From Luzula sylvatica (taxonomy: Eukaryota; Streptophyta; Magnoliopsida; Poales; Juncaceae): 64,000 nucleotides of DNA. The notes beneath the pieces were generated by a model, which saw only the letters and a program-made list of their open reading frames with translations, ran no database searches and had not been told where the DNA came from. Shown here piece after piece: positions 5,306-50,487 of this stretch. The position numbers were made by a program, and so were the translations under genes. The stretch covers positions 12,689,167 to 12,753,166 of the forward strand of contig OX326956.1 in NCBI GenBank assembly GCA_946800325.1, written 5' to 3'. Numbering within the stretch: position 1 is the first letter of the stretch; each line of letters begins with the position of its first letter.

Positions 5306-5738
5306 AATTCAGCATATTGGGTCTAGTCTCATGTAGTTGCATCATAATGGTATAATCATAAGTACAAATAGAGTTGTTGAACTAGGGTCAGTGTTTTGGG
5401 TCAATACATCCGGGTCTCAGCTCAGTATCTAGTCCGTTCGAACGAACAAAAGAGTGCGTTCGGAACGGACAAATAAATTCAACAAATACCATCCTTCCAG
5501 ACTCAAGTCCGTTCGAACGAACTAACTGTGCGTTCTGAACGGACAGATGAAATGAATGATTACAACAAATTCTTTGAGGGGGAGCTCGCATTTAGGGGGA
5601 GCCTTCCGTTTTTGAAGTCTCCTTGGCCCTTTTGATCTCTTTCAAAATGGGGGAGAAACGATCGTACGGAAAGTTCTCAACTAAATGGTGAAACTCTCCA
5701 AACCGACAGTGTTTTGAAATTAATCAAAAGGGGGAGTT
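5306..5738 (+). other. Post-pol region with multiple polypurine tracts and palindromes
   Basis: There is no coding sequence here. Palindromes such as AGTCCGTTCGAACGAAC lie near 5430 and 5510. At least four G-rich purine tracts follow: near 5573-5583 (GAGGGGGAG), 5593-5600, 5647-5655 and 5727-5737 (AAAAGGGGGAG). The last abuts the LTR start TGTTGG at 5739 and is the expected plus-strand primer. Several tracts before the LTR are a described trait of Sireviruses. Confidence 0.8.
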
Positions 5739-7148
5739 TGTTGGTTCAAATTTCCTGATAGTTTGATTATTTCAAAACACTGTCATTACTAATGTTTACA
5801 TCCAGAAAAGTGCAGGATAACATAGGTACGATACGAAGATGAAGGAGGACTTGTGAAGGAGGACTTCATTGGATTACATCAAGAATCAAGACATGAAGTC
5901 TCAAGATAAACAAGAAAAGAAGAAAACATGGAAGGCCATTGGAATACATCAAGACTCAAGATGTTGAAGCCTTCCGTGAGTGGGATACGCCACAAATAAA
6001 CCATAGGTACAAACCTAGTAGAACTCAAGAAAAATCATGTTCAAAATAACAAAGAGTTCAGTCAAGCAGGAAGTGCGTTCTGAACGAACTCAAAGTCCGT
6101 TCAGAACGGACTTGCTAAATATCAAAACTTAAAAAGCTTGATTAGAATCAAACGTGTCACAGGGATGTGTGCGTTCGAACGAAGAATCATGTCCGTTCGA
6201 ACGGATAATTAGAATCCGTTCAAACACCTTCTGAGTGCGTTGAACGGACAATCCTTCCTGTGAACGGAAAATGTCACAGGAATGTGTGCGTTCGAACTAA
6301 CATCCATGTGCGTTCGAACGGACAACCTGGAATCCGTTCACCCACTTTTAAGTGCGTTGAACGGACTCTTGTTCCTGTGAACGCAAAATGCTATGTATAA
6401 TTGAGTCCGTTACGAACGGACATTGTACGTTCGAACGGACCCAAGATGTACTTGCACGTTATTTTGAAACGGCTAGTGCAAACTTCAAGTGCGTTCTGAA
6501 CGAACTGTAATGCGTTCGAACGCACTGCAAGTTTTCTGAAGGATTTATATAGAGAGTATAAATAGAATCCTTCATGGGTCTCTCTCTCCCAACTCTTCAT
6601 TTCTCAAACATTCAAAACCTAAAAAGAGAGAAACCCTAAGCTGTGATTATCTATATCCATTGATAGCTTGAGAAACCTCTTTAGATCATTGATCTACTTT
6701 CGACATTCTCCACTAATCGTATCCCACTCACGTGACCGATCACGTTGTAGCTCGATTAGTGAAAAAGTGTAATAGGCTAGTGCAACAAAGTGTAAAGAGC
6801 CTAAGCTATAGATCGATAGAAGCGTGTAAATCGATCTAGGCAAATCCTTGTAATCGAGTTGAGTTGGAATTCAATCGAAAGCCAAAAAGAGGCACAAGGC
6901 ATTCCCGGAGACGTAGGTACTCGCAAATAATTGAGTCGGTCAATTAAGCGAGTAAAGGGTGAGTTAAAGCTACAAAGCAACCACCTACCGAACTTCGTAA
7001 ACAAACATCTTGTGTCAAAGTGTTTGTACGGTATCATCTTTATCATCTAAATTATTATTTATTCCGCACCATAAATTAGGTTTAAATCTAAACTAAGTAT
7101 AAGTTAGATTGCCAAATTTACCCCCCTCTAGGTTAGAATTAACCAACA
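5739..7148 (+). repeat. 3' LTR of the Sirevirus-like element (1410 bp)
   Basis: It begins TGTTGGTTCAAAT after the purine tract and ends AACCAACA, so the tips form a short inverted repeat. Many 14-16-bp palindromes of the GTCCGTTCGAACGGAC kind lie between about 6070 and 6520, upstream of a TATA-like box near 6555. It matches the 5' LTR over all 757 comparable bases except one. Confidence 0.95.
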
Positions 7149-8155
7149 GATCGCTCTGATACCACTGAAGGAGAATATCCTCGAATCCGGGCCCGCGCAG
7201 CGGAATGAAGGCCCGGTCCGATTCTCCGATTCCCGAGATCACGCCATGACTTCGAGGGTACGATGCGAATAGAAGGATAGATCTATACCAGCGTGAAATT
7301 GATCACGCACGAATGGTTGATCGCCGCCTTCTATCTCCTGTCACGTTGGTGACAATCCGCGCGTCCCATACCACGCGTCTTTCACCGTTCGTTGGCCGTC
7401 TTCTCACTCCTTGGGTCGATCACAATCTAAGAGCCACAATTGTCGCTCCTCTACTTGTATCCACCGTGAGTCGCAAGACGTCGGTCGCGGATGCACCTGC
7501 CTAGACGATGCACCGTCGAACCTGCTCGATCATTTGATTCTCTACACCGAGAAAACTCCTTTTCTCGATTATCTCTCTTTACACCATTTCACTCAATAGA
7601 AAGTTGTATCTCAATTATTCTAGAAAATCTCCTGAATATACTGAATAAGATTGCATTAACTTGCTTTGTGATAAGAGAGAAATTATCCTATTTATACCTA
7701 ATAGGATCAGGATTAGCCAAAAGGCATCTATATCCAATATACACCCTCTCACACAGAAAACTGCATGAACCTGTTCAGTATTCTGTCATTTCGAAATTGG
7801 TAAATTTCTCAGACAGACAATCACCCAACATGAAAGTTGTAGATAATCTAATTATCTACACAACCCAATTTGGCCCAGCCCAATTGGAGTTCGTATGCAA
7901 AAGTTATTACTGTTTTACTAACTGTATGTCATACTGTTGCACCCTTTCGGTATTTCACATAAACGACACTAATACTTCGTTCATATGAAATATATTTCTA
8001 CATGAAGGTTATAGATAATCTAATTATCTATCTAACCCAATTTGAACCATTCAAATCGGATTTTCCCATTGACAGTTATGGCCACGAATGTACGACTACA
8101 TTCGTTTATCCTTGTGTACACTTTTACTGTTGATCCTGAAACTGTATTTCCTTCA
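7149..8155 (-). mobile_element. Minus-strand Copia: 5' LTR and primer-binding site
   Basis: Read on the minus strand, an LTR (7166-8155, 990 bp) starts TGAAGGAAATACAG and ends TCTCCTTCA. It is followed by TGGTATCAGAGC (7153-7164), the primer-binding site. The rest of the element would run leftwards, but the Sirevirus-like element is inserted four bases beyond the primer-binding site, so the body lies outside the window. The LTR is the same family as those at 41028-42060, 42233-43118, 43828-44829 and 53258-54260. Confidence 0.85.
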
Positions 8156-8640
8156 ACGTCGATACCCAACAGTGGTATCAGAGCGATCGTCACGATTCGA
8201 TCGTCGAATCGATTTCAAATAAGTGTTATTCGGAATTTCATGTAGAATTTTAGGACATAATCATGTAGTTATAAAATTAGGACCATAGAAATCTTACTAG
8301 TATTTGATCATGAGATGATCAAAAGAATCTAGAAGTAATCATGAATTGTTCATGATTAATCGTTTTTGAAACGATTAAAATCTGTTAAAATTACAAAATA
8401 AAATTGAAATTCAGGTCCGGTGCGTCATGACGCACGATATGTTGCGTCGTGACGCACAAGTGTATCGGGAAATCCAAGAGTTGGATATGAGGCGTTACAC
8501 TCTGTCCGTCGTGACGCACAAAAGTTGTACTTGTATTTGTATGTTCAATCATGATTTAACGTCTTATTTTGATGTTCAATCATAAAATAAGATAATAAAA
8601 CCTCAAATTAAGATGTTAAATCATGTATTTGTATGTTAAT
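8156..8640 (+). mobile_element. Remnant of a third Copia: LTR end, primer-binding site, leader
   Basis: GATACCCAACA (8161-8171) reads as an LTR end and is followed by TGGTATCAGAGC (8173-8184) on the plus strand. The leader resembles that after 44842. The minus-strand element to the left therefore went into the last bases of this LTR. Near 8420-8435 is the perfect palindrome GTGCGTCATGACGCAC, with partial copies to about 8520. No gag or pol follows, so the element is truncated. Confidence 0.65.
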
Positions 8641-10978
8641 TCTTGAGGTGTTAATCCATATCCACGTCATCAAGGCTCGTGGGGGTGAGGAGCAGGGGAT
8701 GTCCAACATTTTCCTTCCTTGAATGCTTGGTTGTTGATGTTGCCTTCCCCCATTTTTATAAAACACCCTTGTAACATCTCAAAATCTTGTATTGTCCTTA
8801 TAACATGGAAAAAATACTCAAAATGTGACGCATTACCCTTTGCATAATTTAATGTGTACCCCTTGAAAATCTCAAAAGACAATGGCATCAACATTCCTAC
8901 AATAAAAAATAAAATTAATCGCAAATAAAACCTAATCGAGTAGAAATCCAAATTAACTACACAAATCAGCCATGTTGAAGTGACCGATTTAACCCCAAAT
9001 TTAACCCCGAACAAGTTTTGTGTATATTAATTCTGGTGGTACCCACTTCTGGGCAACTTTTTATTTGATGAGCACTCATATTTTTCTCCTAATCTGGTCC
9101 GTCCATCACAATTCAATCAACAATTTAAATTTGAGTCCGAATCTTATTCCGAGTTCTTATTTTGAGTGACCAATTTGGGTCCGGTTCCGTTGAAATTTTA
9201 TTTCGAATCCTTATTTGAATTTTGAAGTGACTAATTTGGGGTCGGTTCCGTCGAGATCTTATTTCGAGTCCATATTTTGAGTCCGAATCTTGATCATAGA
9301 TTGAAATCTCCGAATTTGTTGACTCGCCAAAAAAGTAAGTTTTACCCGCATGTATTTCCCTTCTTTTCTTGCTGAAATAGTTTAACTTAAATCTGAAAAT
9401 GAAGTTAGAAAATCTTATATGTTTTCAATATTCAAATAAGTCAAAAAATAAATCTAATTTCAAACTCACAATTAAATTGAACTAAAAAAAATACTTAAAA
9501 TCCACAAATTGAACAAAAAGTACATGCAACTCTAAACTTGCATTAAAACCACAAGCCATAAATTATAGAAAGTGTACGGAATACTAAAAATATAAAAGCA
9601 TGCTCGCAAAATGAGGCTTGGTGAGATGGTTTAATTTGACGCGTTGCATGTATCAAATTGTATGAAATCCTACAATTTGCATGGAGGTGCAAGAAAGGAA
9701 GGAGAATAGGAAAATCTAATTTTTTTGAAAAGTCAAGTAAGGAAAATAGGAAAATTTAATTGAATAGTCCAATTAGAAAAGATGAACCCTAATGAAAACA
9801 TCAAAGGGGAATCGATCTTCTTAGCAGCAAGGTTTTATGTTCGATTATCCATTACACTTTTCATATCTTCGTTTCCTATTGATTAAAAAGAACGAAACGA
9901 TGACACAAATCAAAACGAATGAGAGATTTTGCTTTTCTTTTCTGATCCTGAAGTATCATAAATATATCAGATCTTCTCACAATTAAACTATTTCCCATAT
10001 ATTAATTATTCTGTTTTCATTTCTAATCAATTTTGCAGAAAATTTAAATAAATTTGAAGCAACTGCAGCAGGTAAAAAAATAACTGCCCGCTGAAATCAG
10101 GTCTTTCTTTTTAATGTCTACATATTTTATATTAGTTGTCCAACTTGTCTACCGTCGCTGATACCTCAAAATGTTGTAGTGCTAGGAGAATACTCGCGCA
10201 ACGAGACGAACATGTTAATTATATTTCTCGTTATAATACGAAATACATATTTGTATTATAATATTTATAATATCATCTCATAATAAAATTATTTGAACTC
10301 ATTATCTATGATAATGTTTATGTTTTACAATTATTTTACATTAAGATAGCAAAAAAACTCATTTTCTTAATCAAATAATAACGTTTATATTAATGTCATT
10401 GTACAATAATATATGAGCCATAACACGATTTTACGAAAACATAACAAAAAAATATTATATCAGTGTTGTTCACAATATTTCAAAGAATATCAAATATAAA
10501 AATAATGAATCATACGACACATGTAATAACATATCATTAGTTATGTAGTACTAAAAATTTGTAATTAATTCAAAATGCAATGAACTCTTGCCTTCCTTTC
10601 TAGTTGCTCTCCCTTTTTTTGGAGTAGTGACTTGCTTCTCAGTTCGAGACGTGGCCAAGTCCAAAAGAACAATATAAAACTTAACAGTGAAAGTAAATCA
10701 ATAAGTAATATACAATAAACACAAATATAAATTATTTTATATCATATGATTTTTTTAACTTATATTTTAAAAAATGACAATACTATTTGATAGGTGTTTA
10801 CAAGTTTAAGAAAATATTTAGATGGATACACTATTTTTTTTATTTCTATTAATTTTTAAAAAAATTAATATTAAATTTGTTTGATTAAAAACACAAATAT
10901 AATCGACTTAATTATACTTTTTCTAAAAATAAATATTAATTATATTATGTAATAAAATACTTAAAATTATATTATGTA
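8640..10978. other. Gene-free stretch
   Basis: No coding sequence with support was seen. 8650-8720 resembles one arm of the foldback MITE at 17135-17380 (it shares CATCAAGGCTCRTGGGGG). 9167-9288 holds a tandem repeat, listed separately. The rest is AT-rich and featureless by eye. Confidence 0.6.
9167..9288. repeat. Two tandem units of about 61 bp
   Basis: Units at 9167-9227 and 9228-9288 share TGACYAATTTGGG, GGTTCCGT and TTATTTCGA. The same words form the terminal repeats of the (TA)n-flanked element at 35868-37032, so this is probably a fragment of that family. Confidence 0.6.
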
Positions 10979-12445
10979 TGTTGTTTAATTTAGACCTAGA
11001 GGGGGGTGAATATGAAGTCCTAAGGTCCAATTTTCGCGGTAATGTAATACAATTACAATTTGGTGCGGAAGCGTAAATAAATTAGAGGAAGAATACAATA
11101 CCAAAACAAATAACACAAGATATTTGTTTACGGAGTTCGGTAGGTGTTTGCTTTGTAGCTTTAACTCACCGTCTACTCGCTCAATCGACCGACTCGATTG
11201 ATTGCAAGTACCTACGTCTCCAGGGTTGCCTTGCGCCTTTTCGGCTTTCGATTGAATACCCAAATCAAGCAATTACAAGTTTTGCATAGATCGATTTACA
11301 CGCTTCTATCGATCTATGGCGAGCTTTACAATCTTTGCACTAGCCTATTACAATTGCCTAATACGAACTGCACGTGATCGGTCACGCAAGTGGGGAATCG
11401 TATTTTATAAGGGGATCTAATAATCTCTAAGAATGTTTAGAAGATTAAGCTCAAGATTTAAAGCTAGAATTTCTCTCTTTTTATTGGAAAAATATATTGG
11501 TTGAGATCATGTGGAGAGAGTGAGGGAAGGGTTCTATTTATAGAACACATAGACTCTTCCCTTATCTTGCTTTTTTCTGCACAGTCCGATACAACGGACA
11601 TATAGTCCGTTACAACGGACCAGAAGTCAAACTAGCCGTTACGGCCAATATATTCGTATTTTTCATAGTCCGTTACAACGGAAATAAGGTCCGTTATAAC
11701 GGAGTTCATGAATTAAGAGTTCGTTATAACGAACTACACAGTCCGTTACAACGGACGTTCAACTATGACCTCACTTCAGGTTTGTTTTATATATCCGTTA
11801 TAACGAAGATTATTCCGTTACAACGGACATGGAGTAATATTTGGTATACTGAAGTAAGTTCAATGTCCGTTACAACGGACATAGTGGTCCATTACAACGG
11901 ACATAGTTCTGTGACTTTTCTTCAAGTTGGCATTAATTAGCGTTGTAACGGTGAAACTTTCGTTACAACGCTTGGTGGATGTCCGTTACAACGGACTGGT
12001 GAATCCGTTGTAACGGACTATACTGTGTTGGTCATTCTTGAAGAGGACGAGAAGGTCCGTTACAACGGACATTGATGGTCCGTTATAACGGACATATTTC
12101 TGTCAGCCTCATTTGCTATTTCATCTTTTTGATGAATTTCGAATATATTTCTTTGACTAATTTTGAGCTTAATAATTCATAAACAAGTTTAGGGATACCT
12201 ATAAATTATTTTGGTGATTTGTGTGATACCCCAACTTGCGGAATCTTCGATGTTTTGATATCTTCACTTGATCATGCGTTTTCGTGCCATCGTTTCTTCA
12301 CCGTCTTGACTTGCGACGTCTTGATTCTTCTTTTGATCCTTTTGTGGGTTATGTCTTCTATCCTTATAAATGTCACTCTCGCAAATAGATTAGTGGTATC
12401 GACATTATTTTGAGATAATCAAATCCTAGGAAATTTGAACCAACA
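10979..12445 (-). mobile_element. Solo LTR, Sirevirus-like, minus strand
   Basis: The 1467-bp LTR runs on the minus strand from TGTTGGTTCAAATTTCC (right) to TTAAACAACA (left). It is flanked by the 5-bp duplication ATGTA (10974-10978 and 12446-12450). Its ends and U5 resemble the 7.1-kb element's LTR (CACCCCCCTCTAGGT), but its palindrome array is a different sequence. No internal region remains, so it arose by recombination between LTRs. Confidence 0.92.
11583..12091. repeat. Array of about 16 palindromes, GTCCGTTACAACGGAC type
   Basis: Some 16 irregularly spaced copies lie in about 510 bp of the U3 part of the solo LTR. Each has 7-bp inverted arms around a 2-bp centre. Several are variants (GTTCGTTATAACGAAC, GTCCATTACAACGGAC). 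Spacing varies from about 4 to 50 bp, so they are not a tandem repeat or a CRISPR array. Confidence 0.85.
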
Positions 12446-12450
12446 ATGTA

Positions 12451-13036
12451 AACATGCACTTTTTGAATTGTATTTTTTACATAATATTTTTACAAATTCA
12501 AATTATGGAAAATGGTATGTATGAATTATGGTAATATGGATGTCAAAATAAAGATAAAATAAAAATATATATATTTGATGAATTTTTAAAATTAAATTTC
12601 TAAAAATAATACTAATATATGTTTTATGTTTTATAATATTGTATATTAAGTTATTAGTATTTTATATATAAACATTTTCATCTTCCATTGCATTCACATT
12701 TGATCACGTAATCTTATGTGAAATAATAAACAATTAAATAAACTTAGTCTAACATGAACATAACTAATAATAATAATTCATATCATTGATGTAGGATGAT
12801 GTGAATTTCTACGAATACTTAAAACATGTTGTAAAATAAGATACATTTAAATTATTACAAAGAAATTATTTTTATAAAAATCAATGATTAACCAATGGTC
12901 TAAATTTTGCTATATATGTGATGATGTGGCACAAAAAAATTACACAAAGTTTGGTTCAAAATAAGAGTGTACATTTTTACAATAATATAATAACAAATTT
13001 TAAGAAATCACAGCTAGGACAGAAGAGTTCTCCTAA
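12451..13036. other. AT-rich 3' flank of the terpene synthase gene
   Basis: No gene was seen. The last part before 13037 is the likely 3' UTR and terminator region of the minus-strand terpene synthase gene. Confidence 0.5.
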
Positions 13037-17703: not shown

Positions 17704-17790
17704 TTTCTTAATTAGTTTCCTCTTTTTCCTTCTTTTTAACTCGAATTGTATTATGATTGTGTGTATGTTATATAATGAAAACCCTCCTCG

Positions 17791-17800: not shown

Positions 17801-17805
17801 AAAAA

Positions 17806-18744: not shown

Positions 18745-18747
18745 GGG

Positions 18748-26952: not shown

Positions 26953-28138
26953 CATGTTTGATTTGAGGGATTAGATGGGATAAGATTTTGAAATCCGGGA
27001 TAAGCCTAAAATATGTTGTTTGATTTGAGGAATTAGATGGGATAAGATTTTGAAATCCGGGATAACGTACTCCCACTTCAAAAATGGTATTTCATCTCTT
27101 ATCCATGAATTACTTATTCTAGCCAATTTACATTATATTTATGAATAATAATTATATTATATTTATATTATGTTATATTATACAATAATAATATTATATA
27201 CTATCATATAATGTAATATAAGATAATAAAATTTACAACAATATATAATATAAAATAATATGATATAAAAATATAATATAATATAATATAATATAACATA
27301 AAACATTATAATATAATATTATATAATATAATATAGTATATTATAATATATTTAACATAATTTAAAACATTATAATATAATATAATATAAAATAATATAA
27401 TATATATAAATATAAAACAGTATAATATAAAATTATATAATATCATATCATATAGCATAAAATAATATAATATTATCTAAAGCAATAGAATATAGAATAT
27501 AAAAAATATATAATAGAATAGAATATTATATAATATAATAGAATATCATATAATATCATATTAAATTAATATCATATCGCATAATCATATAATATAATAT
27601 AATATAATATAATATAATATATAATATAATATAATATGATATGATATGATATGATATGATATAATATAATACAGTATAATATAAAATAATATAATATATA
27701 TAAATATAAAACAGTATAATATAAAATTATATAATATAATATCATATAACATAATATAATACAATATAAAAAATAGAATATTAAATAATATTATTTAAAG
27801 CAATAGAATATAGAATATAAAACAATAGAATATAATAGAATATCATATAATATCATATCGCATAATCATATAATATAATATGATATAATATAATACAGTA
27901 TAATATAATATAATATAAAATAATATAATATATAATAATATATTATAATATAATATAATAAGGGATTAAATATTAAAATATTAAAATCCTGTATTTTGCA
28001 CCAAGAATCAAACAAAGGATTTCATATATATGATTTCAAAATACAACAAATCAAACAACTCACATGGATTACCAAATACATGGATAGTGAAATGTATTTC
28101 ACTATCTATGTATATCACAATCCCTCAAATCAAACATG
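26953..28138. mobile_element. TIR element swollen by an ATAAT/AATAT satellite
   Basis: The ends CATGTTTGATTTGAGGGATT (left) and its inverse at 28116-28138 bracket the unit. The left end holds a tandem duplication of about 60 bp (26956 and 27016). Between 27120 and 27965 lies a degenerate TATAATA-type repeat of about 850 bp. There are no genes. Confidence 0.65.
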
Positions 28139-29415: not shown

Positions 29416-31301
29416 GCCCCCGTTTGGATGAGGGATAAGGTGAGGATAACTTAACTCATCCCTCTATTCCTTGCCAAACATACAAGATGTAAAGAGGTAT
29501 AAGATGGGATAGGGATAAAAATTAGGAATAAGGTTATCACCACAAAAAGTGGTGATAAGGTTATATACTTCATCTATCCCTCAAATTTTTGACCAAACTA
29601 CCCTCACACATATGATTATTATAATAATATTAATATAATATAATATAATATATTATAATATAACATAACATAACATAATACAATATAATATAGTATAATA
29701 TAATATAATATAATATAATACAATACATTATAATATAATACAATACCATACGTTTTAGTACAATACAATATGTTATAATATAATATAATATAATACAATA
29801 TAATTTAATTTAATATAATACATTATAATATAATATAACATAATATAATATAATACAATATAATATAATATAATATAATATAAGATAATACATTATATTA
29901 TAATATCATATCATATCATATTATTTAATATAATTTAATACATTATATAATATTATAATATAATATATATTATAATATAATATACTATAATTAAATATAA
30001 TTTATTATATTATAACATAAGATAACATAATATAACATAATATAATATAATAGCATATATTATAATATAATATAATATAGTATATTATAATATAATATAA
30101 TATAATACAATAATACAATTATAATTTAATATAATTTAATATTATATAATATTATATAATATAATGTAATATAATATAATATAATATAATATAAGATAAC
30201 CCAATAATAATATAATATAATATAATATAATATAATATAATATAATATAATATAATATGTTATAATATAATATATAATATGTTATAATATATAATATATA
30301 TAATATATTATAATATAATATAACATAATATAATATAATATATTTTAATATAATATAATATATGATAATAATTATATTATAATAAAATATAATATAATTT
30401 AATACATTATATTATATTATAATATAATATAATATAACATAATACATTATAATATAATATACCATAATATAATATAATACATTATATTATAATATAATAT
30501 ATAATATATAATATATTTATGTTATAATATAATATAATATAATATAATACAGTTATAATTTTATATAATTTATTATTATACAATATTATATAATATAATG
30601 TAATATAATATAATATAATATAAGATAACCTAATAATCGTACAATATAATATAATATAATATAATATGATGGATAATATAATATACTATATAATACAATA
30701 TAATATAATATAATATAATATAATATATTATAATATAATAAAATATAATTTAATACATTATTTTATAATATAATATATTATAATATAACATAATACATTA
30801 TAATATAATATACTATAATATAATATAATACATTATATTATAATATAGCATATTGTAACATAATATGATATAATATAATATAATATAATATAATATAATA
30901 TAATACAATACATTATAATATAATATAATATAATATAATGTAATATAATACATTATAATCTGATACTTTGTAATATAAAATAAAATAATATAACATAATA
31001 TAATACAATCATAATTTAATATAATTTAATAGTATATAATATTATACAATATAATGTAATATAATATGATATAATATAACCTAATAATATTATAATATAT
31101 TTTTTTAACATATTAATTTGAAATTGATAAGAAAAAGGGTATTTTGGTCATTTCAAAATATTATATTTTAATATCAATACTATCCCAAAATTTATCCACA
31201 CAACCTTACCAAACACCATTCCAAAATTTAGGGATAAATAGGAATAACTCGTTATCCCTCAAATAATTTATACCCACCTTATCCTCTTTCCAAACGGAGC
31301 C
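29416..31301. mobile_element. TIR element with a 1.5-kb AATAT satellite core
   Basis: The ends are GCCCCCGTTTGGATGAGGGA and, inverted, GGCTCCGTTTGGAAAGAGGA, followed by GATAAGGTG on both sides, next to AAA. 29625-31090 is a long degenerate TATAATA/ATAAT repeat with short inverted units. The true ends show that a small MITE has been stretched by satellite growth. There are no genes. Confidence 0.65.
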
Positions 31302-37032: not shown

Positions 37033-37064
<32 letters not shown>

Positions 37065-37067
<3 letters not shown>

Positions 37068-38072: not shown

Positions 38073-38117
<45 letters not shown>

Positions 38118-38305
38118 GATAAATATCTAAAATATCTGTAAATATTTTTTGAAAATAATTCTATCATCAAAAAATTAATTTATCATATAACTCTCCAATC
38201 CCATATATTATATCTGTAGTTTCTTTCCAAATAATCCAACAGTGGATTGGTTGGTTTTTTTTTTTTTTTTGTCGGATTACTACTTCCAGAGTACCATTAA
38301 TTTTC

Positions 38306-39173: not shown

Positions 39174-39289
39174 TTAATTTTCGGGGTACATAACTACATA
39201 TTATTCCCACACTCGCAAGGTTCTCACCCTTTATATTCTCTAGCGACTAGCGATCCTTGCCATAGAAAATTGAGATTAAATATGGAGTC

Positions 39290-39940: not shown

Positions 39941-40092
39941 AAATGAGCCAACACCCCGGTGTGAGAATAAAAAAATCATATATTATTATATATTATGAAA
40001 GATAGGTTCAAGACTCATTTACATCAATGGATGTATAACATAACTGTTAATTTAGAAAATAGTATTTTATATTAATAAAGTTTACTATGCAT

Positions 40093-40923
40093 GTATGTGT
40101 GAAATGTCATGTTCATGAATGTTCTCAACCCGAGAAGTGTGCAGATAATGTGCTTACGAGTCGACATGAAGGACAAAGCTTGGCTCTGACATTTGCGGTT
40201 TAGACATTTGAGCTATGGAGGTCCGCGAGAGTTGGCGAAAAAGTACATGGTGCACGGTCTGCCAAATATAGACTATACGAGCAGATTTTGCGAATGTTGC
40301 ATACTCTGTAAACATTCAAGAGTCCAGTTTTAGAAAAAGGCGAAATATACAGATGCAAGCCCTCTCGAATTGGTGCATATCGATATTTGTGGTCCGATCA
40401 CACCGAAATCGTTCAGTGAGAAAAGATATTTTATTACATTCGTTGATGACTACACAAGGAGGACCTGGATTTATTTTTTGAAGGAAAAATCCGAGGCATT
40501 CAAAGTGTCCAAGAGGTTCAAGGTGCTGGTTGAGAAGATGATCGGACGATATATCAAAGTTTTGCGGTCATATAGAGATAAAGAGTACATCTCAATCTCT
40601 TTTACAAACTTTTGTGAAGAACAAGAGATTAAGAGATTATTGACTGCGTCGTACTCGCCTCAGCAAAATGGTGTGACCGAGAGGAAGAACCGAACCATTC
40701 TCAACATGGTTCGGTCGATGTTGAAGAGTAAAGAAATTCCAAAAGAATTTTGGGCCGAGACGGTACAGTGTGCGGTGCATGTACATAATCGATGTCCTCA
40801 TGCGAAATTGGGTGAGAAAACACCTCAAGAAGCTGGTAGCAGTCAAAAACCGACAACGCCGCATTTCAAGATGTTCGGAAGTGTGACATATGCACATGTA
40901 CCAGATCAAAGGAGGACGAAACT
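40093..40923 (+). pseudogene. Decayed Copia pol, left part: GAG-pre-integrase and integrase
   Basis: The piece is 5'-truncated and starts in the GAG-pre-integrase domain (a W-to-stop change before HLRF, then LSYGGPRELAKK). An in-frame stop at 40330-40332 is followed by an open integrase segment with HIDICGP and FVDDYTRRTW. The usual second catalytic Asp (SDRGGE region) reads RSYRDKEY, so Asp is Tyr; the Glu of NGVTERKNRT remains. The frame ends at TKL, where an LTR begins at 40924. The missing continuation (LDDKSKKFVFIGYD) resumes at 54274, so this is one element split by 13.35 kb. Confidence 0.9.
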
Positions 40924-41027
40924 TGAAGGAAATACAGTTATAGATCAACTAGTAGCATGCACACATGAGGATAGAAATAACATAGTCAGTCATGATGGAC
41001 TGGTTGTCAGTCATGATGGACCTATAG

Positions 41028-42060
41028 TGAAGGGAAATATCCTCGACCCCGGGCCCGCGCAGCGGAATGAAGGCCCGGTCCGATTCCCCGATTCCCGAGA
41101 TCACGCCATGATTTCAAGGGTACGATGCAAATAGAAGGACAGATTCATACCGGTGCAAAATTGATTACACTCGAAGGGTTGATCGCTGCCTTCTATCTCC
41201 TGTCACGTTGGTGACAATCCGCGCGTCCCACACCACGCGTCTTTCACCGTTTGTTGACTACGCCGGTTCACTCGAATCGTGTTCGTGCGACCAAGCGTCA
41301 CCACCGTCTTTCTCACTCGAGTCGATCACAATCGAAAAACCACAAACGTCGTTCCTCTACTTGTATCCACGATGATTCGTAAGAAGTTGGTCGCGGATGC
41401 ACCTGCCTAGACGATGCACCGGCGAACTTGCACGATCTAATCGATTCTCTATCACTCGAGAAACTCTTTTCTCGATTTCTCTCTCTAAACACCTTTTCAC
41501 TCACTAAAGATCAAATCTGAATTTTCTCTTTTTCTCTTGTGTATTTGGCAGAATAATTGCTTAGAATTGCATGGTTAGGAGAGAGAAAGTATCCTATTTA
41601 TATCTAATATGATCAGGATTAGCCAAAAGGCATGTATATCCAATATACACCCTTTCACACAGAAAACTGCATGAACCTGGTCAGTATTCTGTCCAGACGA
41701 AATTGATAAATTTCTCTGACAGAAAATCACCTATCATGAAAGTTGTAGATAATCTAATTATCTACAAAACCCAATTTGGCCCAGCCCAATTGGAGTTCGT
41801 ATGCAACAGTTATGACTGTTTTACTAACTGTATGTCATACTATTGCACCCTTTCGGTATTTCACATAAACGACACTGATACTTCGTTCATATGAAATATA
41901 TTTCTACATGAAGGTTATAGATAATCTAATTATCTATTTAACCCAATTTGAACCATTCAAATCGGATTTTCCTACTGAAAGTAATGGCTACAAATGTACG
42001 CTTACATTCGTTCATCCACGTGTACACTTTTACGGTTGATCCGAAACTGTATTTCTTTCA
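41028..42060 (-). mobile_element. Solo LTR, minus strand, 1033 bp
   Basis: On the minus strand it runs from TGAAAGAAATACAGTTTCGG to ATATTTCCCTTCA, flanked by the exact 5-bp duplication TATAG (41023-41027 and 42061-42065). It is the same family as 7166-8155. Confidence 0.93.
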
Positions 42061-42232
42061 TATAGGTTAATCTGTCATATTACACAGAAATATACACCGT
42101 CAGTCATGATGGACTGGTTGGTCAGTCATGACGGACCAAAGAGAATTTTGTGTACCAATCTGTGAGTATGAGTCATGACTGACTGTATGTCAGTCATGAC
42201 GGACAATATAGTCAGTCATGACGGACTGTATA

Positions 42233-43118
42233 TGAAGGAAATACAGTTTTGGATCAACGGTAAAATGGTACGTAGAAGGACAAACGAACGTACGCGTTCG
42301 TGGGCATAAGAAATAATTTTAGTAAAACTGGCATGACTTTCAGATCCGAACTCCAATTGGGCTGGGCCAAATTGGGTTGGAAATATAATAAGATTATCTA
42401 CAACTTTTGTGAAGGTTTTAAGTCGGTTGGAACGATTTAACAATTTCGTTTCAACAGAATACTGAAAGATTGTGTGCAGTTTTCTATTTGAAAAGGTGTA
42501 TAGTATATATACATACCTTTTGGTTCATCCTTATCCTATGTAGTAGATATAGGATGTTTCTCTCTGATCTATGGAGTCAAGAGAAAGTTAATCGAAGTGA
42601 ATCAATGTCAATTAAAGAGTTAATCCTGAATCTAATTCAGATTAGACTAATTGAGATGATCATTCGAAAGAACACCATCAATAGTTGAATGGGTGTGATG
42701 AGAAAGAGAGAAAGAGAAAAGGAGTTTTCTCGGATTAGAGAATCAAACGCGATCAAGCAAGTTCGCCGGTGCATCGTCTAGGTAGGTGCATCCACGATCG
42801 AGGTGCTACGACTCACGATGGATACGAGTAGAGGAGCGACACATGTGGCTCTTAGTTGTGATCAAACCGGAGACATTCATGGAGATCAGACGGTGGGAGA
42901 CGTGTGGTATGGGACGCACAGGCTAGTCACCAACGTGACACCGGAGAAGAAGAAGGATGCGAGTGATCAACCCGTCGTGCGTGATCAATTTCACGCTGGT
43001 AATCGTCTATCCTACTTTGCATCATACTCTCGAAGTCGAGGCGTGATCTCGGGATTTGGGAACCGGACCGGGCCTTCATATCCGCTGCGCGGGCCAGGAG
43101 TCGGATCGATTCCCTTCA
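42233..43118 (+). mobile_element. Solo LTR, plus strand, 886 bp
   Basis: It runs from TGAAGGAAATACAGTTTTGG to CGATTCCCTTCA, flanked by the exact 5-bp duplication GTATA (42228-42232 and 43119-43123). It sits in the palindrome array of the surrounding LTR. Confidence 0.93.
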
Positions 43119-43827
43119 GTATAGTCATGACAAACTGTATAGTCTGTCATGACGGAATGTATAGCATGTGAGGTGTGTCACGACAGACTGTATAGTCAGT
43201 CATGACGGACTATAAGAGTAACTGCTGTTTTTAGTAACCGTGACTAGTGCGTCATGACGAACTTTATGTCAGTCATGACGGACTATGATCCAAATTCCAT
43301 ATTAACAGTTTTCTTTGTACTCATTAATCCTCTAATTAATGAGGTGATTAATATAAGATCTGGGTGATCCTTTCCTCTCTCCCTGATTAATTTTCTACAG
43401 AGATTATTATGCTTGTGAGACAAGTAATAGAGAGAGCTTGATAATCACCATTAGAGTTAGATGAAGTTCAAGCAAGTTTACGGATTACGGGAATCGAGCG
43501 TAACCGAAAGACGAGGCTCAAGGTGGATACGAGTAGAGCGATTTCACCTAAAATTCTTTATTGTGATCAAGCGAGAGCATGATAAAGGACGGACCGGATG
43601 CAATCCGGTTGTATACGACAAATCGGAGCTCAATCGAAGGTGTCGAATCGCGCGAGAATGGAACGCTTGTGTTACCGAAGATTGGAGCAACAAAAGGAAG
43701 CAACAACCATTCCACCCGTCGTCGTGATCAATTTCACGTGGTATGAATCTATGTCTATAATGGTCCTCAGGATCGGGTCGGACCGGACCCCACAATCCGT
43801 TGCGCGGGGCTCAGTAGTGACCCCGAT

Positions 43828-44829
43828 TGAAGGAAATACAGTTTCGGATCAACCGTAAAAGTGTACACAAGGATAAACGAATGTAAGCGTACATTCGTGG
43901 TCATAACTTTCAGTAGGAAAATCCAATTTGAATGGTTCAAATTGGGTTAGATAAATAATGAGATTATCTAGAACTTTTATGTAGAAATATTGTTCATTTG
44001 AATGAAGTATCAGTGTCGTCGTAATGGAATACCGAAAGGGTGCGACAGTTTGACATACAGCTAGTAAAACGTCCGTAACGTTTGCATCCGAACTCCAAAT
44101 GGTCCAGGACAAATTGGGTTGGAAAGATAATAAGATTATCTACAACTATCGTGAAGGTTTAAAGTCGGTTGGAATGATTTAATATTTTCGTTTCAACAGA
44201 ATACTGAAAGGGTGTCTGCAGTTTTCTGTCTGAAAAGGTGTATATTAGATATACATACCTTTTGGCCCATCATTATCCTATGTGATATAAATAGGATGTT
44301 TCTCTCTCTCTTTAAAGGCAGATCATTCAGTCCAACCTGTTGAATTAATTAGATTAATCCAGAATATTGAGAGTTATCTTTCAGAGAGTGAAAGAGTGCG
44401 AAGAGAGAAAACCGAGAAAAAGAGTTTTTCTCGGATTAATTAGATTAATCCGCGACCGACGTATTCCGACTCAAGGTGGATACACGTAGAGGGGCGACAC
44501 TTGTGGCCCTTCGATTGTGATCAAACCGAAGGAGCAAAACTGTTGGCTGTGGAAGAGTGTGGACGTGGGACACACGAAAGACAACCGGAGGCGTGTCAAG
44601 ACGGTGGGAGACGTGTGGTATGGGACGCACGGGCTAGTCACCAACGTGACACCAGAGAAGGAAAGGATGCGAGTGATCAACCCGTCGTGCGTGATCAATT
44701 TCACGCTGGTAATCGTCTATCCTTCTATTGCATCGTACCCTCGAAGTCATGACGTGATCTTGGATTTTGGGAACCGGACCGGGCCTTCATATCCGCTGCG
44801 CGGGCCCAGGATCGGGTGAATTCCCAACA
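43828..44829 (+). repeat. 5' LTR of the 10.4-kb Copia
   Basis: 1002 bp, from TGAAGGAAATACAG to GAATTCCCAACA. TGGTATCAGAGC begins two bases later. Confidence 0.9.
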
Positions 44830-44830
44830 G

Positions 44831-44842
44831 TGGTATCAGAGC
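44831..44842 (+). other. Primer-binding site of the 10.4-kb Copia
   Basis: TGGTATCAGAGC, initiator methionine tRNA type, just after the 5' LTR. A GC-rich leader patch at 45070-45180 follows. Confidence 0.9.
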
Positions 44843-47294
44843 GAACGCCATCGATTCGAGGGTCGAATCATAGTCGTATATTGGATATACGCACGGGTTA
44901 TCAAAGTTCGTACCCGTTTGCATGATGCTAGATATTTAGAACGTCAATTTCGTTAAAATCACAAGTGGAATTCACTAGATATCAATCAAAAGTTGATTGA
45001 GAGTATCTAGGAATGATCGTGAAAAAGTTTCATGATTTATCGTTTTGGAATTCACTAGATATTAATAAAAGTTCGTACCCCGGGGTCAGTTTTTGGCGCC
45101 CCGGACGCGTCCCGGACGAGGTTTTCTCGCGCCCCTTGGGCCTCTGCATTACAACGGATGGGGCAGGGACCCCCCTCTGGATGCTGATTTTGTTTTCGGG
45201 ATAACTTTGGCTACGAAACTCGGAATTTTGAGTTCTTTATATCGACTTGATCGGCATCAAACATTCTAGCATATAAGATAATTAATTATTTAGAATAATT
45301 AGTCTCCCTAAATAATTCATATGCATTAGAAAATCTTGTGATAGTGATACAATACAATTATGTCACGAAATGAAACATGCATAGGCATGATTCCTCATAA
45401 TATTTAAGTAATGGAAATGCCTTCCATGTCCACAACCACCGAGTTTGGTGTTACGTTTCACGTGGGTTCAGGCTAAAGTCGGGCACGTGATATTGTAACT
45501 ATCGAAAGGGTGGCAAGCATTAAATCAGGACTTGTGAGACCCAGGCTAAAGTCGACTCACTAGTAGGTTATTTGAACGATACGTTGGATATGGTTGTGAC
45601 TTAACTGTCCAGGACAATCGGATTGGAGTTCGGGGCATAGATAGAATGCACACACGGAACTGGGATTGCATATGATACGATCCATCACCGAAATTCTATA
45701 AAGGTTCAAGAGTCGTATTGGATACGATTGGATATTTATCCTACTTAAATAACGGGATCCCACCCGATAGGCTAAAATCACTTGTGGGAGGAACGGAAAT
45801 ATGGGTCTTGAGTGTTATGGACTTGGAGTCCCGTATTGGTATGAGGGTTATCGATTCGATAAAAATAACACATTCATATATTCATCATGTAAGCATATAG
45901 ATTAAGTACGCACGGTTAGGAGCTTAATCTTCATCATCCGTTTAGAATTATGTTTTCTAGCAATACCAAATATATCGATGAGATCGATATGATAGATGGC
46001 TTTTGGGCCGAAATTACCATGATTAACCTTGATAGTTAAAGAATAGTTCTTAGACTTAAAGGAACGTGTTGGACACGGAAAATGGTAGATTCGTGGCTCG
46101 AGGCTTTGGCTTTAGATAAATCCGGGTTCGATACACTTTAAGGAGGAATCGAACAATATTACGTGCCTTGTGGTGGCATGTATAGACGCAAATTTCTCAT
46201 AATTGTTTTGAGAATTCGGGTGCATATGGAAGTAATACACAACGCTCATGAAATAGTTTCAAGAGCTAGAGCGCGTTGAATGGTTCAATGCGGCTCAAAG
46301 AGTAGGTTAATTTTGAGACACCTTATGGGTCTTTGATTAACACTCGAGTGTTGATGGTACGAGATTTGATCTTCGTGACCGAATATCATATACATTCGAT
46401 AGATAAGTCGATCCCGAATTGCATGAGATGCGATGTAAATTTGAATAAGAGATGATTAGAGTGTTCGGGGAATCCAAAGCATAGAGATGCATGGATGTCC
46501 TTGTAATTCAAAGGCGGGATCGAAAGAAATATAGGTCTAAGGGTATTTTGGGAAAATGTTTTCCAAACAGAAAGTTCGGACAAGGAGTTGTCCAAACTAA
46601 TGACTCAAAGAATGGTGAAATCCGAGGAGGATTAAACCTAGAAGTTGATTGCTTCTTTTGGCGTTGCCGTCTTGGCCATATAAACGAGATACGCGTATCT
46701 TGATTCCATATGATGGATTGCTAGAATCTTTCGAATTAGATTCGATTGATTAATGTGATACTTATTTATTAGGCAAGACGACAAAGTGCATCATTCTCCA
46801 AAGGTTGGAGAAAGATCCAACGAATTATTGGAAATTACATTTAGATGTAAATGTTCCGATAAATTCCGAGGCAAGAGGAGGCTATCAATATTTTGTTACG
46901 TTTACGGACGGTTAAAGTAGATACGGTAATATATGTTTAATGCGTGCCGAAGCGGAGACTTTTGAAAGGTTCAAAGAGTTTCAAAAACAAAATACAAAAT
47001 CGACTAAGCAAGAAAATCAAAGCATTTTCGATAGGATCGAGAAGGCGAGTATTTGAACTAAACATTTCGATAGGATCGAGAAGGCGAGTATTTGAGTTAT
47101 AAGTATTGATTATCATTCATCATTGTGGAATCGTTTCACGATTATCTTTATTCGGAACATTGAGATGTGTCCGAAAAGAGGAAATGAACGCATGTTAGAC
47201 ATGATTCGATAAATGATAAGTCAAACGAATCTCCCAAAAATGTTTTGGGAATACGCCCTTGAGATAGCGGCACTAATGAATGGTTGTATATAAG

Positions 47295-49314
47295 TGTAAC
47301 GAGCATAATTAAGCACATTTTTAGGGTTTAAAACCATGCAAAATAATGTTAATTAAACATAAAAACATGCTATAATCTTTATATTCAACAATTCTTGAGG
47401 AAAATACTTTAATGATGAATTTATGTTTATTTCAGGTAAAAAAGGCCATATTTCGACAAATAAACCCCATGGATGGATTCCTCTCATCGAGACGAGCGTT
47501 TTGGATATAAAGATCGTACCATTCGGTGGAAGGACGAAAAAGTCGCAAAGTTTCTGATGAAACGGGTCAGAATTCCTATCCAAATGACCCGCTACACGAA
47601 TGGCTACACCGCAACTAACACAGCATACAACCGTCAAACCTCAGATCCTTCAGTTGATCCTCTGTGGCAATGTGATCACGTGACCCACAGTACATGCATC
47701 TGCCCTCTCTCGAACAACTCTCTTACGTGATCAGCTACACTCACAGAGCCACAAAAGATGTCACCAAGCAGTTCAAACGAACTCATTTGGCTCCATTCAA
47801 TCTCTTCTCCTCTCCAATTCCTCCAACACAGCAGTCTCCTGTTTGCAATTGAGTATAGTAAATGACGAAGAAACATTACTCTCTCAATATAACAGTGCCA
47901 TGGCTGTTGAGAGCTCGAGCTCGTCGTACAGGCGACGTGGCTCACTTCTCTCTCCACCAGCCACGTAGTAACCACCCTGGGACCCTCCTCCACCTCTATC
48001 TCCTCTCAATTTCGATCTCAAATGATAAACTCTGGTGCAATCTCGACTATAAATCTCTGCCATGAGCGAAGCTTAAAAAAAAACCCCTTTCGAGGGGCCT
48101 TTTGGCCCTCTCTCTTCTCCTTCACCTTCGTACCCACTCTCTCATCATCACCACTCTCTCAATTCCACTGATTAGAGCTTAAGTCTCCACCTTTCTCTGA
48201 GTTTAGCTCTGACCAGAACACCCCTCGCCATTACTGCCACCTCAAGCTCTTCTAGTACCCACTCTCCCTTCTCACACCACCATACCCACTCCCAGAAGGT
48301 GTCTCAAGCATCAATTAGATTGATTCAAGCCCAAGCTTCGAGCTTTCTCAGTTTGGCTTCGTGACAGAATCAACCTCCTCCATTAGAGACCTTCAAGCTT
48401 CTCATCTCCCTCCTGGCAGCTTCATTGGGGTGACAACAGACCATAGGATCTAGCCAGATCATCACAACATCCATCTCCACTCTCCATTCTCAGATTGGGT
48501 ACTATCTCTCTTGTTAGGATATTTTTGATATTTTCTTAGTTTCATGCTTGTTTAGATCCAGTTTTGTTTAGTTTTTAGATCTTGTTTGAATCTTTGAATC
48601 CCCCCTTTTATTTGTTTAATGCTTGTTATTCTGAATTTGTGATTTAGTTTAAGTTTAGTAGTGTTTGAATCTGTGCACTGTCTGAGCTGTTTCTTTAATT
48701 AGTTTAAAAATAGTTTTATATCTGATAAAAATCCATAAAAATATGTTTCTAAATCTTGACAACATCTAGTTCATGTAGGAATTTACTGCATCTCATTTCA
48801 TCCATTTTCTCATTTGTTATTGATTGTTAAATTCTAAGATCTGAATCTCTGTGTTTTCTGTCCAATAATTAGTCTTGCATTTTTAGTTAATCGATTATTG
48901 CATATAAAAATCTATAAAAATTATTATGTCTTGTTTGTTTGATTATTGATCTGTGATAAAAGTTTGAAATAATTTGGAATTGTAATTTGAGCTATAAAAA
49001 TTATTGAAATTGATACTTTTCTGTGATCTAGTTTTTGAACACTCTTTGTTTGAGGAATTTTAGAATTTATTTGGATTGATAAAAAGATCTGAAAATTGGA
49101 ACATAGTCTCTCTCAGTGTTGAATTTGTTGTGTGCAATTTAGGAGAATTTTTGGGACTATGAAAGTTGAATTAGAACATTAAACGCTAGAATTACCGTAA
49201 TCTCCCTGTGGATCGATACCCTAACTTGCCATTTTGCTAAGTTTAGGAAGAAATTAAATATTGTTGAATTACTCAAATTAAGAAATAAACGACGCTTAAA
49301 ATTTCGAGTTTTCA
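47295..49314 (+). mobile_element. Solo LTR, TAT/Ogre-like Gypsy type, 2020 bp
   Basis: It begins TGTAACGAGC and ends GAGTTTTCA, with the exact 5-bp duplication ATAAG (47290-47294 and 49315-49319), and it splits the integrase of the surrounding Copia. CCCTGTGGATCGATACCCT (49204-49222) near its 3' end is a motif common in plant TAT-type LTRs. A TATA box (CTATAAATCTC, about 48047) suggests its old promoter. Orientation follows from these. Confidence 0.85.
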
Positions 49315-49867
49315 ATAAGATATGGACCATAAACCTTCTAATCGGTACAAAAGACGCCATATGAGATATGGATCGGAATGGTTCCGAAGTTGTCATTTGT
49401 ACATATTTGAGGATGTGAGTATATTTCGAAATTGGTTTCGATTAAACTCAATCCCAAATCTGAAATTTGTTCGTTTATCATATATCCTTAAGGAAACTAA
49501 AGGGTATTAGTTCTAACGTCCCGACGGAAATGAGATTTTCGTGGCTCGAAGAGATGCCTTCTTGGAGGAGGACTGGATGCGCACAAGTTTGGAACTTGAT
49601 GTTGCTAATCTCTATGCGGGCTAGTGGGAGTAGAATAAATCTCGAAAGAGTTCGAGATCTGAAAATGAACATTGAGCCGATGAAAGTTGACACGACTTCA
49701 TCAAGAGTTTATGAATACGAGTCGAACACACAAATGAATTTTTCGTAGATCAAGTAGGCTATATCATAAGCCGATAAATACGGATTTATCGTGGCTAATG
49801 ATGATAGATCGAAATCATATGATGATTCGATATCCTACAAGGATCCTATGAAAAGTAACGATTCCAC

Positions 49868-50487
49868 TGAAACAAAATATGGCTTAAGAATTAACTTGGA
49901 AGAATTTATATAAATAGGCAAATCTGCAGTCAGAATTGGGTTCGTTCGAACGAACTATTTAAGTGCGTTCGAACGAACTATTTAAGTGCGTTCGAACGAA
50001 CTTATTCGTGATAGTCAGAAGAGAGTTTGTTGGAATGAACTATTTAAGTGCGTTCGAACGAACTTATTTCCTATATATATATAGAATTCTGATTTCGTTT
50101 TAACCTAAGCCTCTTTTCAGAAATTAGGGTTTTGAGCCGCCGCTTTCTCTCTCTTCTTCCACAGAATTTTAGATTAGATCTAGAGAGATTGAGAGGGAGA
50201 TTTGAGCAAAGAACTTGAGAGAATTAATCGTGACGTCGACTAGAACGACGTTGACGGTTTCCGATCGGTCGAAATCAAGGTGGACACGAGTAGAAGGATT
50301 GCACGAGCACTCCTTGGAGAAGGTTCGCGGATTTGGAGAAGAAGTTGACACGTACTAACTTGTACGAGGTAATTTTCTCCAACCCTTCCTTTTTGGATGG
50401 TTTTCGAGTGTGATCCCGGTAGAATTAGGTTATGCATGCGAAACTAATTCCGCTGCACACTTTGATAAACGTGTGCGTAACCCTACA
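49868..50487 (+). mobile_element. Solo LTR with GTTCGTTCGAACGAAC palindromes, 620 bp
   Basis: It begins TGAAACAAAATATGG and ends CGTAACCCTACA, with the exact 5-bp duplication TCCAC (49863-49867 and 50488-50492); it splits the reverse transcriptase N-terminus. Several 16-bp perfect palindromes (49942-50067) lie just before a TATA box (CCTATATATATATAG, near 50072). Confidence 0.9.

What the first reader, a model, noticed from the sequence alone, without database searches (positions are those of the whole stretch)
5431..50067. Different LTR families share arrays of 16-bp palindromes of one form
Unlike sequences repeat a palindrome fitting GTNCGTNNNNACGNAC: GTCCGTTCGAACGGAC (7.1-kb element), GTCCGTTACAACGGAC (solo LTR 10979-12445), GTCAGTCATGACGGAC (split LTR, one position off), GTGCGTCATGACGCAC (8420-8435) and GTTCGTTCGAACGAAC (solo LTR 49868-50487). 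They cluster in U3, often just before a TATA box, with irregular spacing. The middle bases differ by family while GT-CGT and ACG-AC persist. This suggests binding sites for one family of dimeric host factors, an element-encoded protein, or CG-rich sites for silencing or antisilencing. Palindromes are known in Sirevirus LTRs; a shared form across families is my inference.
Basis: partly seen in the sequence, partly recalled or inferred. Interest (0 to 1): 0.82.

Follow-up and report, generated by a model that had tools for sequence, protein, structure and literature searches.

The report
Helically phased palindrome arrays in retrotransposons
Several different jumping-gene families in this plant-like genome carry rows of the same 16-letter mirror-image DNA site, mostly spaced by whole turns of the double helix, which suggests that one family of proteins grips them from one side to control them.

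Summary
The palindromes are real: 36 matches to GTNCGTNNNNACGNAC with at most 1 mismatch, against a shuffle mean of 0.67. The host genome (445 Mb, plant-like, unnamed) has 39,846 exact copies, against 352 for the reversed, equally palindromic control. The five examples fall into three sets: two Sirevirus-like LTRs; two members of another family, whose PBS junction is not that of Sireviruses; and one unclassified solo LTR.

Neighbouring palindromes sit mostly whole helical turns apart: pairs at about 22 bp, longer gaps near 30, 43, 52, 63, 73, 84 and 94 bp. Over nine array groups the best period is 10.50 bp (none of 10,000 jittered sets reached it). Groups without a window member repeat it, also under a harsher grouping. 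Singly, 13 of 23 arrays are significant.

Phasing points to proteins on one face of duplex DNA. RNA hairpins or neutral duplication would not predict it. Palindrome arrays upstream of TATA are known in Sireviruses (Bousios 2010). New here, as far as my searches reach, are this box form, its presence outside Sireviruses and the phasing. The protein is unknown; I judge a cooperative dimeric host activator most likely.

The parts
1..134 (+). 5' LTR (cut by window start) of the 7.1-kb element: sites 14-30, 34-49, 98-114, 119-134
   Evidence: window 1-757 = 6392-7148 at 99.87%; sites
5432..5544 (+). Two palindrome pairs in the linker between pol stop and 3' LTR of the 7.1-kb element; centre distances 22.5, 52.5, 21.5
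5739..7148 (+). 3' LTR of the 7.1-kb Sirevirus-like element (PPT octamer AGGGGGAG at 5577, 5594, 5729; CA/ATTGG junction at 5' LTR; C-rich signal)
6073..6525 (+). U3 array of 12 palindromes ending about 32 bp before TATA (6557); vector strength 0.92 at 10.66 bp
8420..8519 (+). Leader array (3 palindromes; 22 and 62 bp) about 235 bp 3' of PBS 8173 of a truncated non-Sirevirus element
10979..12445 (-). Solo LTR, same lineage as the 7.1-kb element (identical first 17 bp; R/U5 80.6%)
11584..12093 (-). U3 array of 14 palindromes at <=2 mismatches (two more degenerate ones at 11938 and 11958); best period 10.48 bp over the 13 at <=1 mismatch
40924..43827 (+). LTR carrying GTCAGTCATGACGGAC-type palindromes, split by two solo LTRs (41028-42060, repeat TATAG; 42233-43118, repeat GTATA); truncated at 43827
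40985..41021 (+). First palindrome pair of the split LTR (21 bp apart)
42099..42226 (+). Second segment of the split array
43142..43283 (+). Third segment of the split array
49868..50487 (+). Solo LTR (5-bp target repeat TCCAC) nested in a 10.4-kb element (43828-54260)
49940..50063 (+). Array of 4 (<=1 mismatch) or 5 (<=2) GTTCGTTCGAACGAAC-type palindromes next to a TATA-like run; 23-bp spacing, weakest phasing

Best explanation
The arrays are cis-regulatory platforms for one family of sequence-specific, dimer-forming DNA-binding proteins. Each half-site reads (G)TNCGT-Y, and a dimer sits on each 15-17 bp palindrome. SHOWN: the sites are enriched about 100-fold genome-wide over the reversed control, occur in more than one LTR lineage, often come as pairs about 22 bp (two turns) apart, and the longer gaps between neighbours are mostly further whole turns (best period 10.50 bp). 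INFERRED: dimers therefore line up on one face of the double helix and bind cooperatively, possibly with bending or looping between pairs. INFERRED, less sure: the protein is a host transcription factor that activates the LTR promoter next to the arrays, and several families, probably including elements without coding capacity, have converged on it.
For: Enrichment. Phasing: window arrays, period scan peaks at 10.50 (P 0.0007 against uniform distances). One representative of each of nine groups: 45 long distances, best period 10.50, none of 10,000 jittered sets as high; 35 of 45 within 1.5 bp of a multiple of 10.5, about 13 expected. Five groups with no window member in that grouping: best 10.50, none of 20,000 at fixed 10.5, 0.007 with period scan, 16 of 24. 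Another grouping, by spacer DNA only (42 arrays, 12 groups): best 10.50, 35 of 44; its groups without a window member: best 10.55, P 0.002 with scan, 14 of 20. Pair distances: mean 21.76, sd 0.79, n=37. The short linkers inside pairs differ in sequence in eight of nine representatives (in L122 all three are the same). The middle of the palindrome differs by family in a symmetric way: positions 7 and 10 are T-A or C-G in 248 of 255 sites. The 7.1-kb element moved recently (756 of 757 comparable LTR bases identical) and has a full array next to its TATA box. Between its LTRs only two ORFs of 150 aa or more exist: pol (Pfam) and one read as gag by its place (no Pfam hit), which favours a host protein.
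Against: No protein has been identified, and no binding, expression or methylation data were available. Taken singly, 10 of 23 arrays of 7+ sites do not reach P<=0.05 (L121, L122, L131 leader, L134, L140, L141, L146, L147, L153, L154), nor do the split LTR, solo LTR 49868-50487, the linker array and the leader array of the window when only the long gaps are jittered; 39-bp steps recur in solo LTR 49868-50487, L139 and L152. Shuffling the order of distances lowers the fit significantly in only 1 of 19 arrays, so register is kept between neighbours, not proved along whole arrays. The spacer between half-sites varies by +-1 bp, unusual for a rigid dimer. Site conservation figures come from sites chosen at <=1 mismatch to the pattern. 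Activator and repressor cannot be told apart.
Confidence: 0.6

Rival explanations
1. Element-encoded anti-silencing: a protein made by some of these elements, working like VANC of VANDAL transposons, binds the arrays in non-coding DNA and removes silencing; the other families hitch-hike.
For: Family-specific variants of a short motif in dense arrays in non-coding regions resemble VANC targets (PMC5735166, passages seen). Arrays lie in U3, linker and leader, not only next to TATA.
Against: The 7.1-kb element holds only two ORFs of 150 aa or more, pol and a presumed gag. VANC targets grow by tandem duplication, whereas 345 of 377 spacer pairs here are not more alike than shuffled at P<=0.01. The VANC paper's main text has no occurrence of 'helical', 'spacing' or 'palindrom'.
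Confidence: 0.12
2. Host silencing signal: the palindromes fold as RNA hairpins, are diced into siRNAs and attract DNA methylation, as proposed for maize Sirevirus palindromes.
For: The U3 array of the 7.1-kb element folds far better than shuffles (z -11.1, none of 100 as low). Maize palindromes are siRNA hotspots (reported in PMC5311732 and PMC10760457, passages seen).
Against: RNA pairing does not need 10.5-bp spacing or two-turn pairs with unrelated linkers. It can still be a side effect.
Confidence: 0.1
3. Nucleosome setting: the sites keep one rotational position so that they face outward on nucleosomes, and a factor reads them there.
For: The period 10.5 bp fits in principle.
Against: A/T dinucleotides in the spacers show no significant phase relative to the sites (R 0.056, P 0.20).
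Confidence: 0.1
4. Neutral duplication: arrays grew by slippage or unequal exchange and the spacing is inherited, not selected.
For: A 117-bp duplication in the 7.1-kb element and an exact 23-bp repeat in solo LTR 49868-50487. 32 of 377 spacer pairs are more alike than shuffled at P<=0.01, against about 4 expected. In L122 the three linkers inside pairs are identical.
Against: It gives no reason why lengths near 2 to 14 turns recur in groups with unrelated spacers, or why palindromes stay alike while most spacers diverge.
Confidence: 0.05

Closest known systems
Sirevirus repeated-motif (RM) boxes, Bousios et al. 2010 (PMC2829016; sections 9 and 19 read in full, otherwise passages)
   Same: High-copy palindromes in U3 shortly upstream of TATA, 8-32 per element, extra copies in the linker of some, forms differing by element.
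   Different: Published core is CGG then CCG (12 of 13 RMs); here GTNCGT...ACGNAC (CCG then CGG in some, absent in others). They call RMs absent from classic elements and linker copies absent where env is absent; here palindromes occur in a family with a non-Sirevirus PBS junction, and linker copies occur in an element with only 433 bp between pol stop and 3' LTR. 'Helical' and 'spacing' occur in that paper only in its reference list.
Maize Sirevirus LTR palindromes as siRNA hotspots, Bousios et al. 2016 (not held; known here only through passages of PMC5311732 and PMC10760457)
   Same: Clusters of palindromes in the LTR regulatory region, strong predicted RNA structure.
   Different: Different sequence (CACCGGACNNNGTCCGGTG). 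Whether helical spacing was examined there could not be checked.
VANC target motifs of VANDAL transposons, Hosaka et al. 2017 (authors recalled; PMC5735166, passages seen)
   Same: Short motif in dense arrays in non-coding transposon DNA; motif version varies between related families.
   Different: DNA transposons (recalled), non-palindromic motif (YAGTATTAY), arrays grow by tandem repeats, protein is element-encoded.
Box repeats of Tnt1 and similar plant Copia LTR enhancers (Tnt1 box I is named in PMC2829016 section 19; the rest is recalled)
   Same: Symmetric or repeated activator boxes in U3.
   Different: Few copies, one family; sharing across lineages in one genome is not known to me.

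Membership tests
Sirevirus (7.1-kb element) | Several identical PPT octamers AGGGGGAG, the terminal one starting 10 bp before the 3' LTR | tested here: met
   5577, 5594 and 5729; LTR starts 5739; definition
Sirevirus (7.1-kb element) | 5' LTR/PBS junction CA/ATTGG | tested here: met
   ...ccaaca|at TGGTATCAGAGC at window 760; definition from PMC2829016
Sirevirus (7.1-kb element) | C-rich integrase signal near the LTR end | tested here: met
   tttacccccctctagg about 20 bp before the LTR end
Sirevirus (7.1-kb element) | AT/TG attachment site after the terminal PPT | tested here: not met
   TT/TG here; the paper reports AT in 20 elements, so I call the element Sirevirus-like
Sirevirus RM boxes (the palindromes) | Core CGG-CCG signature | tested here: not met
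   core is TNCGT...ACGNA; CCG...CGG only in GTCC/GGAC variants
Sirevirus (family of the 8420 array, L131, L150) | CA/ATTGG junction | tested here: not met
   CA/GTGG in window 8173, L131 8397 and L150 1141
Sirevirus (split LTR 40924-43827) | PPT and PBS junction | not testable with these tools
   truncated LTR without adjoining PPT or PBS of its own; assigned to the L131 family by 69.8% LTR similarity
Sirevirus (solo LTR 49868-50487) | PPT, PBS, C-rich signal | tested here: inconclusive
   no C-rich signal at its end; a solo LTR has no PPT or PBS; shares a U5 box with the split LTR
VANC-type anti-silencing | Element-encoded DNA-binding anti-silencing protein | tested here: inconclusive
   the 7.1-kb element has only pol and a presumed gag as ORFs of 150 aa or more; full elements of the other array families were not examined
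Same-face dimer array (a working model, not a named family) | Site-to-site distances near multiples of about 10.5 bp | tested here: met
   pooled; singly 13 of 23 arrays
Same-face dimer array (a working model, not a named family) | A protein that binds, with phase-dependent cooperativity | not testable with these tools
   needs binding assays

The most novel reading that the evidence does not exclude
Sirevirus-like and unrelated LTR retrotransposons of one genome, probably including elements with no genes, have converged on one architecture: dimers of a single undescribed DNA-binding protein family stacked in two-turn pairs along one face of the LTR. The middle bases of the palindromes diverge by family while the core and the helical register are kept, possibly tracking different members of that protein family.
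Probability: 0.35. Interest if true: 0.75.

Novelty: new variant of a known kind. Interest (0 to 1): 0.62.

Why it matters
The 2010 Sirevirus study could not name a common binding factor for LTR palindromes. Later papers whose passages I saw stress RNA structure and siRNAs, though one also says that such palindromes mark the regulatory region. Helical phasing is a signature of proteins on duplex DNA, so it redirects the question to a protein and gives a bait (two palindromes 22 bp apart) to find it. A factor shared by several retrotransposon lineages would be a common control point for many elements of a genome.

Tried and rejected
Rejected: chance; 'irregular spacing'; RNA structure as the main cause (one search shows strong folding, but it does not explain phase); rotational nucleosome signal from A/T steps (P 0.20); a single rigid lattice over whole arrays (order shuffles, 1 of 19 below 0.05); all arrays by tandem duplication. 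NAC, MYB, ARF and HSF sites were considered from memory only; none seemed to fit all variants, and no claim is made.

Copies of solo LTR 49868-50487 and counts of 17-bp palindromes could not be searched because the tool stayed busy. Pfam on 17 ORFs of 70 aa or more of the 10.4-kb element found nothing at E 0.1.

Weak points of my statistics: outside the window, arrays come from contig C1 (most of them chosen through exact matches listed first) plus two systematic windows on C4 (L128, L134); groups were made by similarity of masked DNA and are not a phylogeny. In one search, 49 of the 69 hits were used; 4 in the 5' LTR copy and 16 isolated ones were dropped by hand. In some searches, L123 and L124 (repeat copies) and arrays of fewer than 3 sites were dropped. 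The five 'no window member' groups hold only in the grouping; the L122 and L153 arrays join the group of solo LTR 10979-12445, so one search repeated the test with the groups (L134 left out as a relative of L160).
Full report
WHAT WAS CLAIMED.

THE OBSERVATION. At up to one mismatch the window has 36 matches against a shuffle mean of 0.67. A half-site model (GTNCGTY, 0-5 bp, RACGNAC) gives 29 exact and 46 at one mismatch or less, against 0.03 and 0.97 in 30 shuffles. The window lies in a 445-Mb genome of six large contigs (61-77 Mb) plus small ones. There the form occurs 39,846 times, while the same pattern read backwards, also a palindrome of equal composition, occurs 352 times. For GTCCGTTNNAACGGAC the numbers are 12,427 and 1. 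In 12 systematic 10-kb windows, arrays occur in 3 (L128, L131, L134) and a lone site in a fourth (L127); one further 18-bp match in L128 is probably chance.

ANATOMY. (A) A 7.1-kb element, its 5' LTR cut by the window start: PBS 760, pol ORF 2168-5305 with integrase and RVT_2 domains, an upstream ORF 782-2032 read as gag by its place (no Pfam hit), PPT octamers 5577, 5594 and 5729, 3' LTR 5739-7148. Twelve palindromes fill U3 up to about 32 bp before TATA, and four more lie in the linker. (B) Solo LTR 10979-12445, minus strand, same first 17 bp and 80.6% in R/U5. (C) A split LTR from 40924, interrupted by solo LTRs 41028-42060 and 42233-43118 with target repeats TATAG and GTATA, truncated at 43827. 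(D) 8420-8519, a leader array about 235 bp after PBS 8173. (E) Solo LTR 49868-50487 with target repeat TCCAC, nested in a 10.4-kb element (LTRs 95.6% alike) in which no coding domain was found: 17 ORFs of 70 aa or more in Pfam, no hit of A's RT, RNase H, integrase or gag pieces.

LINEAGES. A and B carry Sirevirus marks (PPT octamers and CA/ATTGG junction in A, C-rich signal in both; definitions from PMC2829016); A's attachment site is TT/TG, not the usual AT/TG. D belongs to a family seen in L131 and L150, with a U3 array, a CA/GTGG junction and a leader array (U5 box seen in L131). D is 97.6% identical to the L131 leader. C resembles the L131 LTR (69.8% over 630 bp). L131 also matches the internal region of the 10.4-kb element (77.7% over 529 bp), so this family may be non-autonomous, which is an inference. 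E shares the U5 box with C. L146 has R/U5 like the Sirevirus-like A family (77.7% over 220 bp with L128) but mostly CATG-centred palindromes like C. Palindrome centres therefore switch within a lineage and are shared between lineages. The lineage of E stays unproved.

HELICAL PHASING. Neighbour centre distances in the window fall at 19.5-23, 30-31, 43.5, 51.5-54, 62-64.5, 73.5 and 94 bp, with exceptions at 39 and 68. The 18 distances above 25 bp peak at period 10.50 (P 0.0007 including the period scan; 49 of 69 hits used, see Tried and rejected). Window and genome stretches gave 35 arrays of at least 3 sites (<=1 mismatch) in nine groups by similarity of masked DNA. For one representative per group there are 82 distances: 37 short (mean 21.76, sd 0.79) and 45 long, best period 10.50, none of 10,000 jittered sets as high; 35 of 45 are within 1.5 bp of a multiple of 10.5 where about 13 are expected. 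Five groups with no window member in this grouping: best 10.50, 0 of 20,000 at fixed period, 0.007 with period scan, 16 of 24 within 1.5 bp. After adding nine more stretches (seven more arrays) and grouping 42 arrays by spacer DNA alone into 12 groups: best 10.50, 35 of 44. That grouping links L122 and L153 to solo LTR B, so the hold-out was repeated with its groups that lack a window member: best 10.55, 0 of 20,000 at fixed 10.5, 0.002 with scan, 14 of 20; leaving out L139 and L148 as well, best 10.60, 0.0001 and 0.003, 12 of 17.

LIMITS OF THE PHASING. Singly, 13 of 23 arrays of at least 7 sites reach P<=0.05; the other ten are L121, L122, the L131 leader, L134, L140, L141, L146, L147, L153 and L154. 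C, E, D and A's linker array are not significant alone; the copies of the C/L131 LTR family pooled give 19 of 25 and P 0.003 with scan, but they are related copies. L146's distances taken as neighbours fit better (6 of 7) than its array-wide register (R 0.63). Shuffling the order of distances lowers the fit significantly in 1 of 19 arrays, so the register is a rule between neighbours, not a proved lattice. Some duplication is present: a 117-bp unit in A, a 23-bp unit in E, and 32 of 377 spacer pairs more alike than shuffled at P<=0.01.

THE SITE. Among 255 sites with the 2-bp spacer (redundant copies included, chosen at <=1 mismatch, so high conservation is partly by construction), T2, C4, G5, T6 and their partners are 95-100% conserved, while the outer G and C are 82-85%; position 3 prefers C, then G, then T. 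83 of 129 single mismatches are at the outermost bases and 17 are CpG transitions. Positions 7 and 10 are T-A or C-G in 248 of 255. Twenty-nine sites have a 3-bp and 9 a 1-bp spacer.

MECHANISM. Phasing with mostly unrelated spacers is what cooperative proteins on one face of duplex DNA would select. Two half-sites face each other in each palindrome, and two palindromes make a two-turn unit. The arrays sit beside a TATA-like box in A, B and E, and A moved recently (756 of 757 comparable LTR bases identical), so the arrays are at least compatible with activity. I infer a host dimeric activator; a repressor or an anti-silencing protein is not excluded. RNA folding of A's U3 array is strong (z -11.1) and may attract siRNAs as in maize, but does not explain phase.

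WHAT IS KNOWN. Bousios et al. 2010 described palindromic RM boxes in 13 Sireviruses, 12 of them with a CGG-CCG core, upstream of TATA, said to be absent from classic elements, with no common factor found. Their text has 'helical' and 'spacing' only in references. Bousios et al. 2016 could not be read. VANC targets are the best functional analogy for variable motif arrays. In the searches made (listings, some capped) I found no report of helical phasing of LTR palindromes; this covers only the held open-access papers.

VERDICT. A real, strong and partly new feature: a known kind of LTR palindrome array in a new form, present outside Sireviruses, and helically phased.

Noticed in passing
43828-54260: A 10.4-kb LTR element (LTRs 95.6% alike) with no detected coding domain, PPT-like GAGTGGGAGAC and PBS TGGTATCAGAGC: a candidate large non-autonomous (LARD-like) element; no palindrome array was found in its own LTRs.
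   Followed up: partly
L131 8644-9243; L150 1389-1511; window 8420-8519: Palindrome arrays also lie downstream of the PBS, in the 5' leader, of the L131 family; L131 and L150 have a U3 array as well, so arrays flank the promoter on both sides.
   Followed up: partly
solo LTR 10979-12445, spacers at 11757-11792, 11829-11864, 11903-11937, 12019-12054: By eye, four spacers carry a CTTCAAG/CTTGAAG-like short symmetric motif near their middle; possibly a second factor's site.
   Followed up: no
L014, L029, L044, L050, L075 (viral contig IMGVR_UViG_3300037991_002558): A viral contig carries several scattered copies of GTCCGTTNNAACGGAC, perhaps a phage regulator site; not examined.
   Followed up: no
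40298-40939 and 54694-56074: Copia integrase and RT/RNase H remnants only 29-37% identical to the 7.1-kb element: other Copia lineages nearby.
   Followed up: partly
27175-27960 and 29624-31099: Long AT-rich 5-bp tandem arrays (ATATA/ATAAT type), about 155 and 293 copies.
   Followed up: no
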